Under the pieces are notes generated by a model. The model had not been told where the DNA came from, did not search any database, and worked only from the letters and a program-made list of their open reading frames with translations. DNA of 6,459 bases from Lentzea sp. (lineage in GTDB: Bacteria > Actinomycetota > Actinomycetes > Mycobacteriales > Pseudonocardiaceae), in the NCBI GenBank assembly GCA_030146905.1, contig JASLAV010001007.1, forward strand, positions 1 to 6,459. The letters are read 5' to 3'. Every line of letters begins with the position of its first letter. Positions within the stretch are counted from its first letter, which is position 1. The position numbers and the translations under genes were made by a program. This document shows positions 1,745 to 6,459 of this stretch, in pieces.

Positions 1745-1764
1745 GCAGCGGGCTATCCCGCTGC
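1745..1764 (-). terminator. Tight stem-loop over the mannanase stop codon
   Basis: GCAGCGGG at 1745-1752 and CCCGCTGC at 1757-1764 form a perfect 8-bp stem with a 4-nt loop that holds part of the TAG stop codon of the mannanase gene. It may stabilise the 3' end of that mRNA or help termination together with the neighbouring stem-loop. No T-tract follows. Part of the stem is coding, so some of the symmetry could be chance. Confidence 0.35.
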
Positions 1765-3339
1765 GTTCATGAGGTCCACCGCGCTGTGCTGACGGGCGGC
1801 GTCACTGCGCTGGAACGGGCCCGCCCACGGCTGGTCGTACGAGTCGGCGCTGGACCGGTCCCGCGCGTGGGCGGTGTCGGCCTGGCGGCGCAGGTAACCG
1901 GTGTACGGGCGGTCGGGCAGCGCCCTGTTCAGCGCGGCCAGCCCGCGGGCGTAGACGCCCTTGAAGGACGGGACGTCCCCGCCACCGCCGTCGTCGAACA
2001 GGATGCCGCCGGGGTTGAGGAAGCCGCTGCCGGTCGAGGCGTCCGCGAGGGTGCGCGCCCTGGCGAGCAGGCTCGCGTCCCCGGTCGCCCGGTGCAGCTC
2101 GGTCAGCGCGGCGAGCGGAACGCCCTGGTTGTAGCTCCACGGCGTGAGGTTGTTGTTGGCGCAGGTGGCCGTGGTCAGACCGTCGTTGACCAGGCCCGCG
2201 CTGTTGATCATCTTGCTGGCGGCGAACCAGTTCCAGCCGGTCCTGGCGCGCTGCAGGTAGGTGGTGTCGCCGGGGATCCTGTTGTGCAGGGCGGCGTTGA
2301 GCTGGACGTACAGCGAGTTGGTGATGGCGTTCTTGTAGTTCTTGCTGGCGCTCCACCACACGCCACCGCCGCAGACGGAGTCCCAGTACCGGAAGATGTG
2401 GTCGGCGCCGACGCGGGCGGTGGTGAGGTACCTGCTCTCCCCGGTCAGGTCGTAGGCGGCCAGCCACGCCAGGCCCCACCAGGCGATGTCGTCGTTGTAG
2501 TCGTTGATGAAGTTGCCCTGCCAGGCCCTGATGTTGAGGTCGTAGGTGCGGGCGATGGCGTAGCGGTAGCTGTTCATCCCGGTCACCCGGATGTTGTCGA
2601 TGACCGCGGTGAGCGCGTTCGCCGAGTTCCACCAGCCCGTCGTGTCGAACAGGCCGGTGCCGAGGTTGTAGCGCTGCATCAGCGCCGTGGCCGCGGCCGT
2701 GCGGCGTTCACCGGCGTTCCACGTCGTGCGGTACCAGCTGGTGCACGCGATCGTGGACGACCCGGCCGGGCGCCCGCAGGCCCGCAGCAGGCCGACGCCG
2801 AGGCCGGCCCAGTCGTCCACGTTGAACATCATGGTGCGCCACTCGCCGAAGCCCGCGGGGGCGGACGTGTTGCCGAGCCTGGACCCGGAAGCCCAGCTGA
2901 CGCCGGCGTCGAAGGAGCGGTCCAGCCACACCTCGTCGCCCTGCTGGACGGAGGACATCGCCGCCCATCCCATCGCGTCCGTGTCGTTGAAGCGCAGCGA
3001 GAGCTGGCGTCCTCCGACGGAGACGGTCTGAGCCAGGCGTTGCGCGGGCGCGAGTGCGGGATCGCGGGCGTCGCAGTGCTTGTTGCAGATGACGGCCGAT
3101 GCGGCCGGTGGGGTGCTTCCCGTCGACGGCGGGTTGCCGGTCGCCGGTTGTGCGCTGGTGCCGGGCCGGTGGCCGGAGCGCCGTGCACTGGCGGGCAGGG
3201 TGGGGTCGCGGTCGTCGCAGTAGTAGTCGCAGTCCACGGTGGAGGGAGCCGGTGGCGGTGCGCCGGCCTGCGACTCCGGTGGAACGGCGAGGACGACCGT
3301 GGACATCATCAGGGACGCGAGGAACGCAGCTCTCAACAT
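1753..3339 (-). CDS. Secreted glycoside hydrolase family 76 protein (alpha-1,6-mannanase type)
   Basis: This 528-residue protein has a signal peptide at about residues 1-25. GH76 enzymes are endo-acting alpha-1,6-mannanases that cut the backbone of yeast mannan or related mannans outside the cell. The catalytic domain spans about residues 210-475 and shows the (alpha/alpha)6 signatures. YNDDIAWWGLAWLAAY at 281-296 contains the paired aspartates D283 and D284 that act as nucleophile and acid/base in the family. GGVWWSASKNYKNAITNSL lies at 324-342, WSYNQG at 401-406 and FKGVYARGLAAL at 459-470. The region before it is unusual. A C-x3-CD-x-RDP-x-L motif occurs twice (C37/C41 and C85/C89), separated by a Pro/Thr/Ser/Gly-rich linker. 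A domain at about 100-208 follows, with DEVWLDRSFDAG and the cysteines in LLRACGR and IACTSWYR; I cannot name it. The ATG at 3339 has a strong GGGAGGT ribosome binding site and starts the signal peptide. The promoter carries a LacI-type operator, so induction by a mannan-derived sugar is inferred. Confidence 0.93.
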   Translation of the reverse strand: MLRAAFLASLMMSTVVLAVPPESQAGAPPPAPSTVDCDYYCDDRDPTLPASARRSGHRPGTSAQPATGNPPSTGSTPPAASAVICNKHCDARDPALAPAQRLAQTVSVGGRQLSLRFNDTDAMGWAAMSSVQQGDEVWLDRSFDAGVSWASGSRLGNTSAPAGFGEWRTMMFNVDDWAGLGVGLLRACGRPAGSSTIACTSWYRTTWNAGERRTAAATALMQRYNLGTGLFDTTGWWNSANALTAVIDNIRVTGMNSYRYAIARTYDLNIRAWQGNFINDYNDDIAWWGLAWLAAYDLTGESRYLTTARVGADHIFRYWDSVCGGGVWWSASKNYKNAITNSLYVQLNAALHNRIPGDTTYLQRARTGWNWFAASKMINSAGLVNDGLTTATCANNNLTPWSYNQGVPLAALTELHRATGDASLLARARTLADASTGSGFLNPGGILFDDGGGGDVPSFKGVYARGLAALNRALPDRPYTGYLRRQADTAHARDRSSADSYDQPWAGPFQRSDAARQHSAVDLMNAAG

Positions 3340-3427: not shown

Positions 3428-3490
3428 CGCCTCCGACTGGTCAGGTTTTTGTCAGAGCGTTCAATGGGGAGCACAACCCGCGCACGAAAC

Positions 3491-3495
3491 GAGGA
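3491..3495 (+). promoter_or_regulatory. Ribosome binding site deciding the methyltransferase start
   Basis: GAGGA lies 4 nt before the ATG at 3500 and supports that start over the in-frame ATG at 3464, which has no comparable site and would add 12 polar residues not expected in the fold. Confidence 0.55.
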
Positions 3496-3499
3496 CTTC

Positions 3500-4309
3500 A
3501 TGGCCGAGGACCGGCAGACCCAGATCCGCGGCGCGTTCGACGCCGCGGCAGCCGATTTCACCGCGCTGGGGCGCCACCTGTGGGAGCCGATCGGCACGGC
3601 GGCGGTCGCCGTGGCCGACCCGAGGCCCGGTGAACGCGTCCTCGACGCCTGCTGCGGCACGGGAGCCTCGGCGATCCCGGCCGCCGGGCTCGTCGGTGCG
3701 AACGGACACGTCGACGCAGTGGACATGTCCGGCCCCATGGTCGACGAGCTGCGCCGGCTGTCGGCGGACCTGCCCCAGTTGCACGCCCACCAGGCGGACG
3801 TGACGACGTGGCAGGGAGAGAGCTACGACGTGGTGCAGTCGGCGCTCGGCATCTTCTTCTTCCCCGACATGACCGCGGGAACCGACCACCTGATCAGCCT
3901 GGCGAAGCCGGGCGGGCGCGTGGTGTTCACCATCTGGCGCGGCGAGTCGATGGCCGCGGCCGGCCGTCATCTCGGCCTCGCCGTCGCCGATGTCACGGGC
4001 ACGCCGGCGCCGGCACCCCGTCCGCCTCACCTGATCGACCGGGTCAACCAGCCGGACGCCTACGCGGACTGGTTGACCGGACGAGGTCTGGCCGGCGTCG
4101 AGGTGGCGGTGAACGAGATGGCGCTGACGATGACCCCGGAGGTGGCGTGGCTGGTGGTCGTCGGGTCCGGTTTCCGCGGAGCGCTCGCGAAGGTGCCGGC
4201 GGATCGGGTGGAAGCCGTGCGGGAGCGCTATCTGGCGTCACTGCGGGACGAGGGCGTGACACAGCTCGACGCCACCACGTTGATCGGCAGCGGTCGCCGC
4301 ACCGCGTGA
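3500..4309 (+). CDS. Class I SAM-dependent methyltransferase
   Basis: This 269-residue soluble protein carries a Rossmann-type methyltransferase domain. Motif I is VLDACCGTGASAIPAA at about residues 47-62, the glycine-rich S-adenosylmethionine loop. The acidic end of strand 2, VDAVDMS with D75, should contact the ribose hydroxyls. Motifs around YDVVQSALGIFFFPD (109-123) and the strand after LAKPGGRVVFTIW (134-146) complete the UbiE/Methyltransf_11-like core. The N-terminal IRGAFDAAAADF helix is also typical of this group. The C-terminal part (about 175-269) probably shapes the acceptor pocket, and no specific acceptor can be read from it. The cysteine pair in DACCGTG is common in this subgroup. 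The gene is divergent from the mannanase across a 160-bp gap and shares no operon with it. The next gene starts 82 bp downstream behind its own regulatory box, so co-function is not implied. The family call is firm; the substrate is unknown. Confidence 0.9.
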   Translation: MAEDRQTQIRGAFDAAAADFTALGRHLWEPIGTAAVAVADPRPGERVLDACCGTGASAIPAAGLVGANGHVDAVDMSGPMVDELRRLSADLPQLHAHQADVTTWQGESYDVVQSALGIFFFPDMTAGTDHLISLAKPGGRVVFTIWRGESMAAAGRHLGLAVADVTGTPAPAPRPPHLIDRVNQPDAYADWLTGRGLAGVEVAVNEMALTMTPEVAWLVVVGSGFRGALAKVPADRVEAVRERYLASLRDEGVTQLDATTLIGSGRRTA

Positions 4310-4328
4310 CGTGCAACTCGTGAACTAG

Positions 4329-4345
4329 ATGCAAATGATTGTCAT
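4329..4345. promoter_or_regulatory. Zur/Fur-family-like box before the ABC importer
   Basis: ATGCAAATGATTGTCAT is an interrupted palindrome in which 7 of 8 base pairs around the centre would pair if one asymmetric C/T and one A/G position are allowed (6 exact). Its core TGCAAATGATTGTCA matches the TGAAAATGATTTTCA form of actinobacterial zinc-uptake regulator (Zur) boxes, recalled from memory, at 13 of 15 positions. It lies about 46 bp before the start codon and upstream of a candidate -10 box. A nickel-regulator (Nur) box of two TTGCAA units is a weaker alternative: ATGCAA and TTGTCA are present but spaced by 4 rather than 5. The AT-rich patch stands out sharply from its GC-rich surroundings. 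Confidence 0.65.
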
Positions 4346-4349
4346 GAGC

Positions 4350-4355
4350 TAACGT
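4350..4355 (+). promoter_or_regulatory. Candidate -10 box of the ABC importer operon
   Basis: TAACGT lies directly after the Zur-like box and 36 bp before the start codon. With a -10 here, the box covers the spacer and -35 region, a position where a bound repressor would exclude RNA polymerase. No good -35 hexamer is seen, so this is tentative. Confidence 0.35.
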
Positions 4356-4391
4356 CGGTGCGTTGCCGCTCTCATGACGTCAGGAAGCCTC

Positions 4392-5888
4392 ATGCACCAC
4401 CGCGCGCCCTTGGCCGCCGCCGGACTGACCGCCGTCTCGGTTCTCCTCACCGGGTGTTTCGCCTCCGGAGCGGGGGAGACGGCGGGACCGTCCGGAGGGG
4501 ACAGGATCAAGCTGGCCATGATGCAGCCACCGCGGTCCGGCCTGTCGCCGTTCAGCGACGACGCGTTCAAGCTGTCCCGCTGGTCCACCGCGGAGACGCT
4601 GGTGACGCTGGACGACAACGGGGACGCCCGGCCGGGACTCGCGACCGGGTGGCGGCGCACCTCGGACACCGCCTGGGAGTTCACCGTCCGCGACGGCGTG
4701 AAGTTCCACGACGGCAGCCCCCTGACGGCGGCGGTCGCCGTGAACACGCTCACCAGGGCGATGAAGGCGGTGCCGAAACCGCGCATCCTCGACGGCGTCA
4801 CGCTCACCGCGGCGGTGGCGGGGGACAAGCTGGCCGTCACCACGGGAACGCCGGACCCGCTTCTGCCGCAACGGTTGTCGTCGCCCCAGCTGTCCATTCT
4901 GGCCGAGAGCGCGTACGCGGCGGACGGCAAGGTCAACCCGGTCGGCACCGGCAGCGGGCCGTTCCGGCTGGTGCGGGTCGGCGGGACCACGAGCGCGACC
5001 CTCGACCGCCACGACGGCTACTGGGGTGAGAAGGCGAAGGCCGCGGGCATCGACGTGTCCTTCGTGCCGGACGGCACCGCGCGTGCCGCCGCCATCCGCA
5101 GCGGAGAGGCGCACATCGCCGAGGCCGTCCCGGTCTCGCAGGCCGCGCTGCTCGATCCGCCGACCATCAGCGAGGTGCCGATGCCGCGCACCAACACCCT
5201 CTACCTCAACACCAAGACCGGGCCCTTCGCCGATCCCGCGGTGCGAGCAGCCGCACGCGAGACGATCGACCGCGGCCAGCTCGTCGGCGGTGTCTACGAG
5301 AACCGCGCCGACATCGCCAAGGGACTGCTCGGACCCGCGTTGCCGTGGACCGTCCAGGCCAGGAAGGAGATCACCGGCCGCGTCGCGGCAGGCCGGCCGA
5401 ACGGTGCCACGATCACGCTGGCGACCTTCACCGACCGCGCGGAACTGCCGGAGGTCGCCTCGATCGTCCAGCAACAGCTCCAGGACGCCGGCTTCACCGT
5501 GAACCAGGTCGTGCGCGAGTACGCCCACATCGAACAGGACATGCTGGCCGGCAGGTTCGACGCGTTCATCCTGTCCAGGGCGACCGTGCTCGACTCCGGT
5601 GACCCCGTCGCCTACCTGAAGTCGGACTTCACCTGCGCCGGTTCCTTCAACATCGCGCAGCTGTGCGACGAGAAGGTCGACCAGGCCGTGCTCAGGGCGG
5701 AGGCCGCGGAGGCCGGTGAGCAGCGCCGCGCGGCGATCCTCGAGGCCGAGGCCGCCGTGCTGCGCACCGACGCCGCCATCCCGATGCTGCACGAACGTGT
5801 GATCCAGGGTGACGCCACGTCGGTCGCCGGCTCCGTGAAGGACCCGCGCGAGCGGGCGCTCGTCACCGCCGCCACGCACGTGAAGTGA
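4392..5888 (+). CDS. ABC importer substrate-binding lipoprotein, peptide/nickel class (SBP_bac_5)
   Basis: This 498-residue lipoprotein captures the substrate outside the membrane for an Opp/Dpp/Nik/Cnt-type ABC importer. The signal peptide ends in the lipobox LLTGC, with C22 the lipidated residue. Family hallmarks follow in order: ETLVTLDDNGDARPGLATGW (68-87), the signature WEFTVRDGVKFHDGSPLTA (95-113), NPVGTGSGPFRL (182-193), NTLYLNTKTGPFADPAVRAA (268-287) and the C-terminal lobe up to HERVIQGD (467-474). C415 and C425 may form a disulfide. The length is normal. The ATG at 4392 has AGGAAG just upstream (4382-4387); the in-frame ATG at 4374 has no such site and would lengthen the signal peptide's N-region. 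The permease gene follows after 11 bp, so the two are co-transcribed. The Zur-like box suggests metal-limitation control, hence a metal or metallophore substrate, though the sequence alone does not exclude peptides. There is no His-rich loop of the ZnuA kind. Confidence 0.92.
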   Translation: MHHRAPLAAAGLTAVSVLLTGCFASGAGETAGPSGGDRIKLAMMQPPRSGLSPFSDDAFKLSRWSTAETLVTLDDNGDARPGLATGWRRTSDTAWEFTVRDGVKFHDGSPLTAAVAVNTLTRAMKAVPKPRILDGVTLTAAVAGDKLAVTTGTPDPLLPQRLSSPQLSILAESAYAADGKVNPVGTGSGPFRLVRVGGTTSATLDRHDGYWGEKAKAAGIDVSFVPDGTARAAAIRSGEAHIAEAVPVSQAALLDPPTISEVPMPRTNTLYLNTKTGPFADPAVRAAARETIDRGQLVGGVYENRADIAKGLLGPALPWTVQARKEITGRVAAGRPNGATITLATFTDRAELPEVASIVQQQLQDAGFTVNQVVREYAHIEQDMLAGRFDAFILSRATVLDSGDPVAYLKSDFTCAGSFNIAQLCDEKVDQAVLRAEAAEAGEQRRAAILEAEAAVLRTDAAIPMLHERVIQGDATSVAGSVKDPRERALVTAATHVK

Positions 5889-5899
5889 GGGCGGAGCCG

Positions 5900-6459
5900 A
5901 TGCGCGGGCGCGCGGGAGTCGTGCTCTCACGCCTCGGCGCGCTCGCGCTGATCACGATCGTCGTCGGGCTCCTGCCCTGGTTGTCCGGGCGCGACCCCGC
6001 GTTGTCGGTGCTGCGGGCGCGGTCGGCGGAGCAGGAGCCGACACCGGAGGCGCTCGACGCGGTGCGCCGGCAGCTCGGGCTCGACGCCGGGCCCGTCGAC
6101 GTGTTCACCGGCTGGCTGTCGGGGCTGGTGCGCGGAGACCTCGGTCGTTCGTGGACCAGCGGTGCCGAGGTGCTGCCGTCCGTGCTGTCCGGCCTCGGCG
6201 TCTCCCTCACGCTGATGTGCGCGGCGGTCGTCGTCGCGGTCGTCGTGTCGGCGGCGCTGTGCCTGCCGAGCCTGCTGCGAGGCGCTCGCGGCGACGGCGC
6301 CGGAGCGACCGGTGGCGCGGGGGCGGCGCTCGCGCCACCGGTCGCTCCGGCGCCGTCGCCGCGAGCGCCTCGCAGCAGGCTCGGCAGGCACAGCGCCGCC
6401 GACACGACGACCGCGACGACGACCGCCGCGCACATAAGCGTGAGGGAGACGCCGAGGCC
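5900..6459 (+). CDS. ABC importer permease, DppB/NikB type, incomplete and disrupted by an inverted repeat
   Basis: This is the start of the inner-membrane permease that pairs with the preceding binding protein. The ATG follows the binding-protein stop by 11 bp, with a purine-rich GGCGGAG site overlapping the gap. The first transmembrane helix is at about residues 8-28. It is followed by the typical periplasmic segment with ALDAVRRQLGLDAGPVDVF (51-69) and LVRGDLGRSWTSGAEVLPSVL (split here only for reading: 76-96), the DppB-family hallmark. The second helix is LTLMCAAVVVAVVVSAALCL (103-122). A full protein would have about 300 residues and six helices. From residue about 141 (6320) the frame enters the reverse arm of the large inverted repeat. 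It stays open but encodes Pro/Ala/Arg/Thr-rich sequence with no helices, so only residues 1-140 are credible. The rest of the operon (second permease, ATPases) is outside the window. Confidence 0.88.
   Translation, partial: MRGRAGVVLSRLGALALITIVVGLLPWLSGRDPALSVLRARSAEQEPTPEALDAVRRQLGLDAGPVDVFTGWLSGLVRGDLGRSWTSGAEVLPSVLSGLGVSLTLMCAAVVVAVVVSAALCLPSLLRGARGDGAGATGGAGAALAPPVAPAPSPRAPRSRLGRHSAADTTTATTTAAHISVRETPR
6191..6459. repeat. Near-perfect 129-bp inverted repeat ending at the window edge
   Basis: Bases 6191-6319 are repeated in reverse complement at 6331-6459, with an 11-nt centre (6320-6330). Only one position fails to pair: G6214 against A6436, which in the sense frame is CTG versus CTT, both leucine. 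The left arm is normal permease coding sequence; the right arm is its antisense copy. The outer end cannot be seen because the repeat reaches the last base. A fold-back or assembly artefact at a contig end is more likely than a real 269-bp hairpin. Confidence 0.95.

What the first reader, a model, noticed from the sequence alone, without database searches (positions are those of the whole stretch)
6191..6459. Permease gene folds back on itself in a 129-bp near-perfect inverted repeat at the window end
The two arms differ at one base pair in 129, and the reverse arm is antisense to conserved permease coding sequence. The single difference is synonymous and gives a rare A/T-ending leucine codon in the reverse arm, which fits a sequencing error rather than long divergence. 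The repeat stops exactly at the window edge, and the arm length is close to a large assembly k-mer. A fold-back read, amplification chimera or assembly-graph turn at a contig end is the simplest reading. If it is real, it would be a long hairpin that inactivates the importer, or a terminal structure of a replicon.
Basis: partly seen in the sequence, partly recalled or inferred. Interest (0 to 1): 0.7.

Follow-up and report, generated by a model that had tools for sequence, protein, structure and literature searches.

The report
Fold-back copying artefact at sequence end
The last 126 or so bases of this Lentzea-like sequence are a mirror-image copy of the gene just before them, most likely made in the test tube when a DNA strand folded back and primed itself, so the finding is probably ordinary and not a real genome feature.

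Summary
The inverted repeat is real in the letters: arms 6191-6319 and 6331-6459, 128 of 129 bases complementary, 11-base spacer. But the normal gene does not stop at 6319. Against ten Lentzea orthologues, normal permease sequence runs through the spacer and 3-4 bases into the second arm, to 6333/6334, then similarity ends. The break lies on self-complementary CGC(G) at 6331-6334, which can pair with 6316-6319. This is what self-priming gives: the sense strand's 3' end snapped back over an 11-base loop and a polymerase copied the strand back to 6191. The ten orthologues have stems of 8-9 bases at most there. Of 99 protein matches, none reaches beyond 17 of the 41 residues of the antisense tail. 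The single mismatch lies in the copy: 9 of 9 relatives checked agree with the forward arm. A plain assembly-graph turn at a usual k-mer fits less well. I could see no reads; I cannot tell amplification from library preparation, nor prove that 6459 is a contig end. Verdict: technical artefact, low interest.

The parts
5900..6333 (+). Genuine 5' part of a peptide/nickel-type ABC permease gene (first half of a fused two-permease gene in relatives); the last genuine base may be 6334
   Evidence: 80-89% DNA identity to ten Lentzea orthologues over stretches that end at window 6333 (eight), 6334 (one) or 6338 (one); Pfam BPD_transp_1_N, E 0.00026, 21.6 bits, below its cut-off of 23.8; L015 orthologue 584 aa with two PF00528 stretches
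6191..6319 (+). Template arm: normal permease coding sequence that was copied
   Evidence: alignment with nine Lentzea and one Saccharothrix locus; 128 of 129 complementary to 6331-6459
6320..6330 (+). Loop: 11 bases of normal coding sequence between the arms
   Evidence: identical to L007 and L005 at 11 of 11 bases, to L015 at 10 of 11 (three loci compared)
6331..6334 (+). Priming match CGC(G): sequence that fits relatives and can pair with 6316-6319; the break lies after 6333 or 6334
   Evidence: 3-4 of 4 bases match L015, L007, L005, then 4-6 of 11. 6334 is a third codon position, G in the window and in 2 of 10 orthologues, C in 8 of 10
6335..6459 (-). Fold-back copy: reverse complement of 6191-6315 (one base differs), antisense to the permease gene; not expected in the real genome
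   Evidence: 28-32 of 114 bases (6346-6459) match the colinear position in three relatives, about chance; of 99 protein hits none goes beyond 17 residues into the 41-residue tail; no Pfam hit
6436..6436 (+). Single copying or reading error (A, expected C) in the fold-back copy
   Evidence: partner 6214 is G in the window and in 9 of 9 Lentzea loci printed

Best explanation
The end of the window is an in vitro fold-back chimera. A single strand carrying the gene in sense orientation ended, or was trimmed, at 6333/6334. Its 3' end CGC(G) annealed to CGCG at 6316-6319 of the same strand across an 11-base loop, and a polymerase extended it, copying the strand backwards from 6315 to 6191. The product was sequenced and an assembler joined it to the true sequence. 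Shown: the repeat, the point where similarity to relatives ends, the complementary bases there, the absence of the structure in the ten orthologues looked at. Inferred: that it happened in vitro, which enzyme did it (phi29 amplification, or end repair during library preparation), that 6459 is a contig end, and that 6436 is a copying or sequencing error (G read as if T, as from an oxidised G, would fit; speculation).
For: Colinear similarity to ten Lentzea orthologues continues through the loop to 6333/6334 (6338 in one) and then ends; in the three loci counted it falls to chance. Relatives continue L-A-A-L-P-E-F (nine loci); a loosely defined P-E-F-like motif ([PA][EDS][FYL]) follows at this point in 118 of the 120 homologues listed, of 2591 found. 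The break sits on a 3-4 base self-complementary match. The longest stem in the same stretch of the ten orthologues is 8-9 bases. None of 99 protein matches to the chimeric ORF covers the antisense tail; the longest reach is 17 of 41 residues (P0002). The mismatch is in the copy, not in the template. The published self-priming model predicts this layout: hairpin from a short natural complement, 3' end extended with the 5' part of the same strand as template, inner part natural (passages of PMC3946424). In a single-cell phi29 amplification 406 of 475 chimeras were inverted, with 2-21 complementary bases at over 70% of junctions (abstract and Results of PMC1855051).
Against: No raw reads, coverage or assembly record could be seen; no whole genome is held for the window, so the contig-end premise is untested. 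Predicted DNA folding of 6294-6334 is no better than shuffles (z 0.42; 124 of 200 shuffles fold at least as well) and its best structure pairs the 3' end in another register, so the fold is not specially favoured. PMC1855051 excludes hairpin self-priming as a major route in phi29 amplification, and the artefact reads of PMC3946424 were AT-rich, unlike this arm of 78% G+C. No same-species sequence was found to show the true continuation (closest of the 120 listed homologues 90% identical over the N-terminal 144 residues).
Confidence: 0.92

Rival explanations
1. Assembly-graph turn: the assembler walked from the true path onto its own reverse complement at a contig end and stopped one k-mer later, with at most a trivial chimeric read behind it.
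For: The reverse arm runs exactly to the window end; contig ends at graph branches are common (recalled). k = 141 would fit if the true break were 6331, i.e. if this strain did not have Ala at 6332-6334.
Against: All ten orthologues have Ala there, which puts the break at 6333/6334 and k at 143 or 144, not a usual value (127 and 141 recalled). An exact turn leaves no mismatch, but 6436 differs. A turn still needs a k-mer that spans the loop, hence a chimeric read, so it is at most the second half of the main explanation.
Confidence: 0.04
2. Real in vivo fold-back: in this strain a broken chromosome or replicon end healed by snap-back copying, giving a large inverted duplication or hairpin-capped end; a short-read assembly would show only the first stretch of the mirror copy.
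For: Fold-back formation of inverted duplications is described for the human genome (PMC3907307) and very large inverted repeats for some bacterial chromosomes (PMC5345009); of both I saw only title and abstract start. Such an event would look the same in one contig end.
Against: None of the ten orthologues has it. In genome G015, which encodes the Lentzea guizhouensis protein P0001, the locus lies at 7.22 Mb of about 10.0 Mb, not near an end. It would cut a conserved permease. Long perfect hairpins are unstable in bacteria (general knowledge).
Confidence: 0.03
3. Functional inverted repeat, such as a regulatory hairpin, an invertible switch or a mobile-element end inside the permease gene.
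For: Only the size and near-perfection of the arms.
Against: The second arm copies coding sequence of this very gene with one change; no mobile-element family among the six window proteins searched in Pfam; the junction core (22 bases fixed, 11 free) has 0 exact matches in viral contigs; plasmid records match only the permease part (6 records, none over 80% of the query).
Confidence: 0.01

Closest known systems
Interrupted-palindrome read artefact from hairpin self-priming in library preparation (PMC3946424; passages seen)
   Same: Short natural complement, loop, 3' end extended on the 5' part of the same strand; inner part natural sequence, only the 3' part artificial
   Different: Described for degraded historic and ancient DNA, with AT-rich artefact reads; here arms are 129 bases in G+C-rich DNA and seen in an assembled sequence
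Inverted chimeras of multiple displacement amplification (PMC1855051; abstract and Results read)
   Same: Inverted second segment, few complementary bases at the junction, nearby template
   Different: The paper's model is priming on a displaced neighbouring strand with a deletion between segments, and it excludes hairpin self-priming as a major route. Here the arms are only 11 bases apart
Inverted-repeat chimeric reads from sonication or enzymatic fragmentation (PMC10908179; passages seen)
   Same: Chimeric reads built from a strand and its own inverted complement after end repair at short inverted repeats
   Different: Reported on human libraries, at natural inverted repeats of 8 bases or more by their filter; here 3-4 bases

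Membership tests
Self-primed fold-back artefact | Near-perfect inverted arms with a short loop | tested here: met
   128 of 129, loop 11 bases
Self-primed fold-back artefact | Natural sequence through the loop up to the priming bases, artificial only beyond | tested here: met
   colinear with ten orthologues to 6333/6334, 6338 in one; chance level after in the three loci counted
Self-primed fold-back artefact | Short complementary match at the break | tested here: met
   CGC(G) 6331-6334 with 6316-6319 (sequence); in a G+C-rich stretch 3-4 bases are weak evidence alone
Self-primed fold-back artefact | Stable hairpin in this register predicted at the 3' end (helpful, not strictly defining) | tested here: not met
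   z 0.42 and another register
Self-primed fold-back artefact | Absent from relatives and from other assemblies | tested here: met
   0 of 10 orthologues; 0 of 99 protein hits cover the tail; only 7996 candidates scored and no same-species record seen
Self-primed fold-back artefact | Supported by few or single reads, at a contig or read end | not testable with these tools
   no reads; no genome held
Replicon terminus (hairpin telomere or fold-back chromosome end) | Locus at the end of a linear replicon | tested here: inconclusive
   interior in G015 (7.22 of about 10.0 Mb); own genome not held
Replicon terminus (hairpin telomere or fold-back chromosome end) | Structure shared by related replicons | tested here: not met
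   no perfect stem over 9 bases in ten orthologues
Assembly-graph turn at the k-mer length | Arm end equals break plus k, for a usual odd k, and arms identical | tested here: not met
   k would be 143/144 and one mismatch exists; derivation mine

The most novel reading that the evidence does not exclude
A real in vivo snap-back in this Lentzea-like strain: a chromosome or replicon end repaired by 3-4 base self-priming inside the permease gene, leaving a long inverted duplication of which the window shows only the first 126 or so bases.
Probability: 0.03. Interest if true: 0.4.

Novelty: not a real feature. Interest (0 to 1): 0.05.

Why it matters
It matters only as a caution: a fold-back copy at a sequence end makes a false truncated permease with an antisense tail, and could be mistaken for a replicon terminus or a regulatory hairpin. 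Comparing the break with relatives, rather than looking at arm length, helps to tell them apart: here genuine-looking sequence runs past the centre of symmetry to the priming bases.

Tried and rejected
Special hairpin-forming sequence as cause: DNA folding of 6294-6334 gave z 0.42 and a different register, so no support. Replicon end or mobile element: plasmid search found only the permease part (6 records, none over 80% of the query); junction core 0 exact matches in viral contigs. Search for a same-species intact copy: none among the 120 listed of 2591 homologues; the closest is 90% identical over 144 residues. P0002, whose alignment runs 17 residues into the tail (filters off), was read: it has L-A-A-L-P-E-F followed by what looks like a frameshift, not a fold-back; judged by eye. 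P0178, one of the two of 120 without the motif, was not looked into. Paper searches gave nothing I used; of one search I used only titles and abstract starts; of the listings I opened PMC1855051, PMC10908179 and PMC3946424, one each. I make no claim that contig-end artefacts of this kind are undescribed.

Full report
What is there. The window's last 269 bases hold two arms, 6191-6319 and 6331-6459, complementary at 128 of 129 positions, with 11 bases between. First-order Markov sequences of the window's composition (200 of 359 bases) give perfect stems of 7.8 bases on average and 13 at most, against 105 here.

Where it is. The window comes from a close relative of the genus Lentzea: the solute-binding protein gene just upstream is 88-93% identical in protein (best segment) to nine Lentzea loci, and 2.85 kb of DNA, 3484-6333, is 88.6% identical to Lentzea pudingi. 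The gene hit by the repeat is a peptide/nickel-type ABC permease.

Where the true sequence ends. Of 24 genomes searched in the genus of L. pudingi, ten have an orthologue at E 1.1e-99 or better (80-89% identity); of the other 14, thirteen have only weaker matches (5.3e-25 or worse) and one has none. In all ten the colinear alignment runs past 6319 and through the 11-base spacer, and ends at window 6333 (eight), 6334 (one) or 6338 (one). The ten overlap with the nine Lentzea loci; they are not ten further species. Bases 6320-6330 match L007 (L. jiangxiensis) and L005 (L. alba) at 11 of 11 and L015 at 10 of 11; over 6335-6345 agreement drops to 4-6 of 11 and over 6346-6459 to 28-32 of 114, about chance. 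Relatives go on L-A-A-L-P-E-F-L-L (nine loci); the window goes on L-A-P-P-V-A-P. Among the 120 homologues listed (of 2591 found), 118 show a P-E-F-like motif, loosely defined, at that point; the two others are P0133, named as a Lentzea guizhouensis protein and apparently the second half of a frame-shifted gene, and P0178, not looked into. So the centre of symmetry (6325) is not the break. The break is 8-9 bases further on, after the bases CGC(G) at 6331-6334, which can pair with CGCG at 6316-6319.

Mechanism. That offset is the mark of self-priming: the sense strand ended at 6333/6334, its 3' end folded back over an 11-base loop, paired by 3-4 bases, and was extended along itself to 6191. It makes the loop and the priming bases natural and only what follows artificial, as found. 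The one mismatch lies in the copy: 9 of 9 Lentzea loci printed carry the forward arm's G at 6214. The same process is proposed for library preparation (PMC3946424, passages; a related one in PMC10908179, passages) and, by another route, inverted chimeras arise in phi29 amplification (PMC1855051, abstract and Results). PMC1855051 excludes the hairpin route as a major one in that reaction, which tilts me slightly towards library preparation; against that, the artefact reads of PMC3946424 were AT-rich. I cannot tell which it was.

Against biology. None of the ten orthologues has a perfect stem of more than 9 bases in the same stretch. In the protein search with the chimeric ORF (186 residues; 99 matches, only the 7996 candidates sharing most words scored, candidates limited in length so that full-length fused permeases are out of reach) alignments end at query residue 147 or before, except P0002, which runs to 162 with a weak, apparently frame-shifted end; the tail is residues 146-186. 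The tail has no Pfam match. In G015, which encodes the L. guizhouensis protein P0001, the locus lies at 7.22 Mb of about 10.0 Mb. Plasmid records match only the permease.

Against the graph-turn form. If the assembler had stopped on re-entering its own reverse complement, the window end would equal the break plus k in mirror coordinates, which gives k = 143 or 144 for a break at 6333 or 6334; and the re-entered k-mer could hold no mismatch, whereas 6436 lies inside it. k = 141 would fit only if this strain lacked the Ala codon that all ten orthologues have. These are derivations, not tool results.

Limits. No reads, no coverage, no genome for the window, and no same-species copy. That 6459 is a contig end is likely but unproved. 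The folding prediction does not single out this hairpin (z 0.42), and 3-4 complementary bases in DNA of 78% G+C are weak evidence by themselves; the strong evidence is the mirror copy itself together with the position of the break.

Verdict. Technical fold-back chimera, probability 0.92; not a feature of the genome; interest 0.05.

Noticed in passing
4330-4344 (TGCAAATGATTGTCA), about 30 bases before the first ATG (4374) of the binding-protein ORF: A 15-base imperfect palindrome that resembles an actinobacterial Zur operator (consensus recalled). It is identical in 9 of 9 Lentzea loci and present with one or two changes in 4 of 4 Saccharothrix loci, absent from 4 of 4 other actinobacterial loci scanned (only bases 4801-5080 of each locus; 7 further loci not scanned). 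With a P-type ATPase gene next to the operon in L015 (8270-10159, - strand) it suggests a metal or metallophore importer rather than a peptide importer.
   Followed up: partly
L015 6521-8275; window 5900 onward: Two permease subunits are fused in one gene; the L015 protein of 584 residues has two PF00528 stretches, and nine Lentzea loci give open frames of similar length.
   Followed up: partly
L026 (G015; encodes P0001, named Lentzea guizhouensis): The permease gene is split into two ORFs (P0001, and apparently P0133) by a net loss of 2 bases some tens of bases before the window's break point; could be a true pseudogene or an error in G+C-rich sequence.
   Followed up: partly
1753-3339, - strand: A protein with a GH76 domain (Pfam) has two N-terminal repeats of the form C-[DN]-x-x-C-D-x-R-D-P-x-L (DCDYYCDDRDPTLPASARR, ICNKHCDARDPALAPAQR; read by eye) before the catalytic part; meaning unknown.
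   Followed up: no
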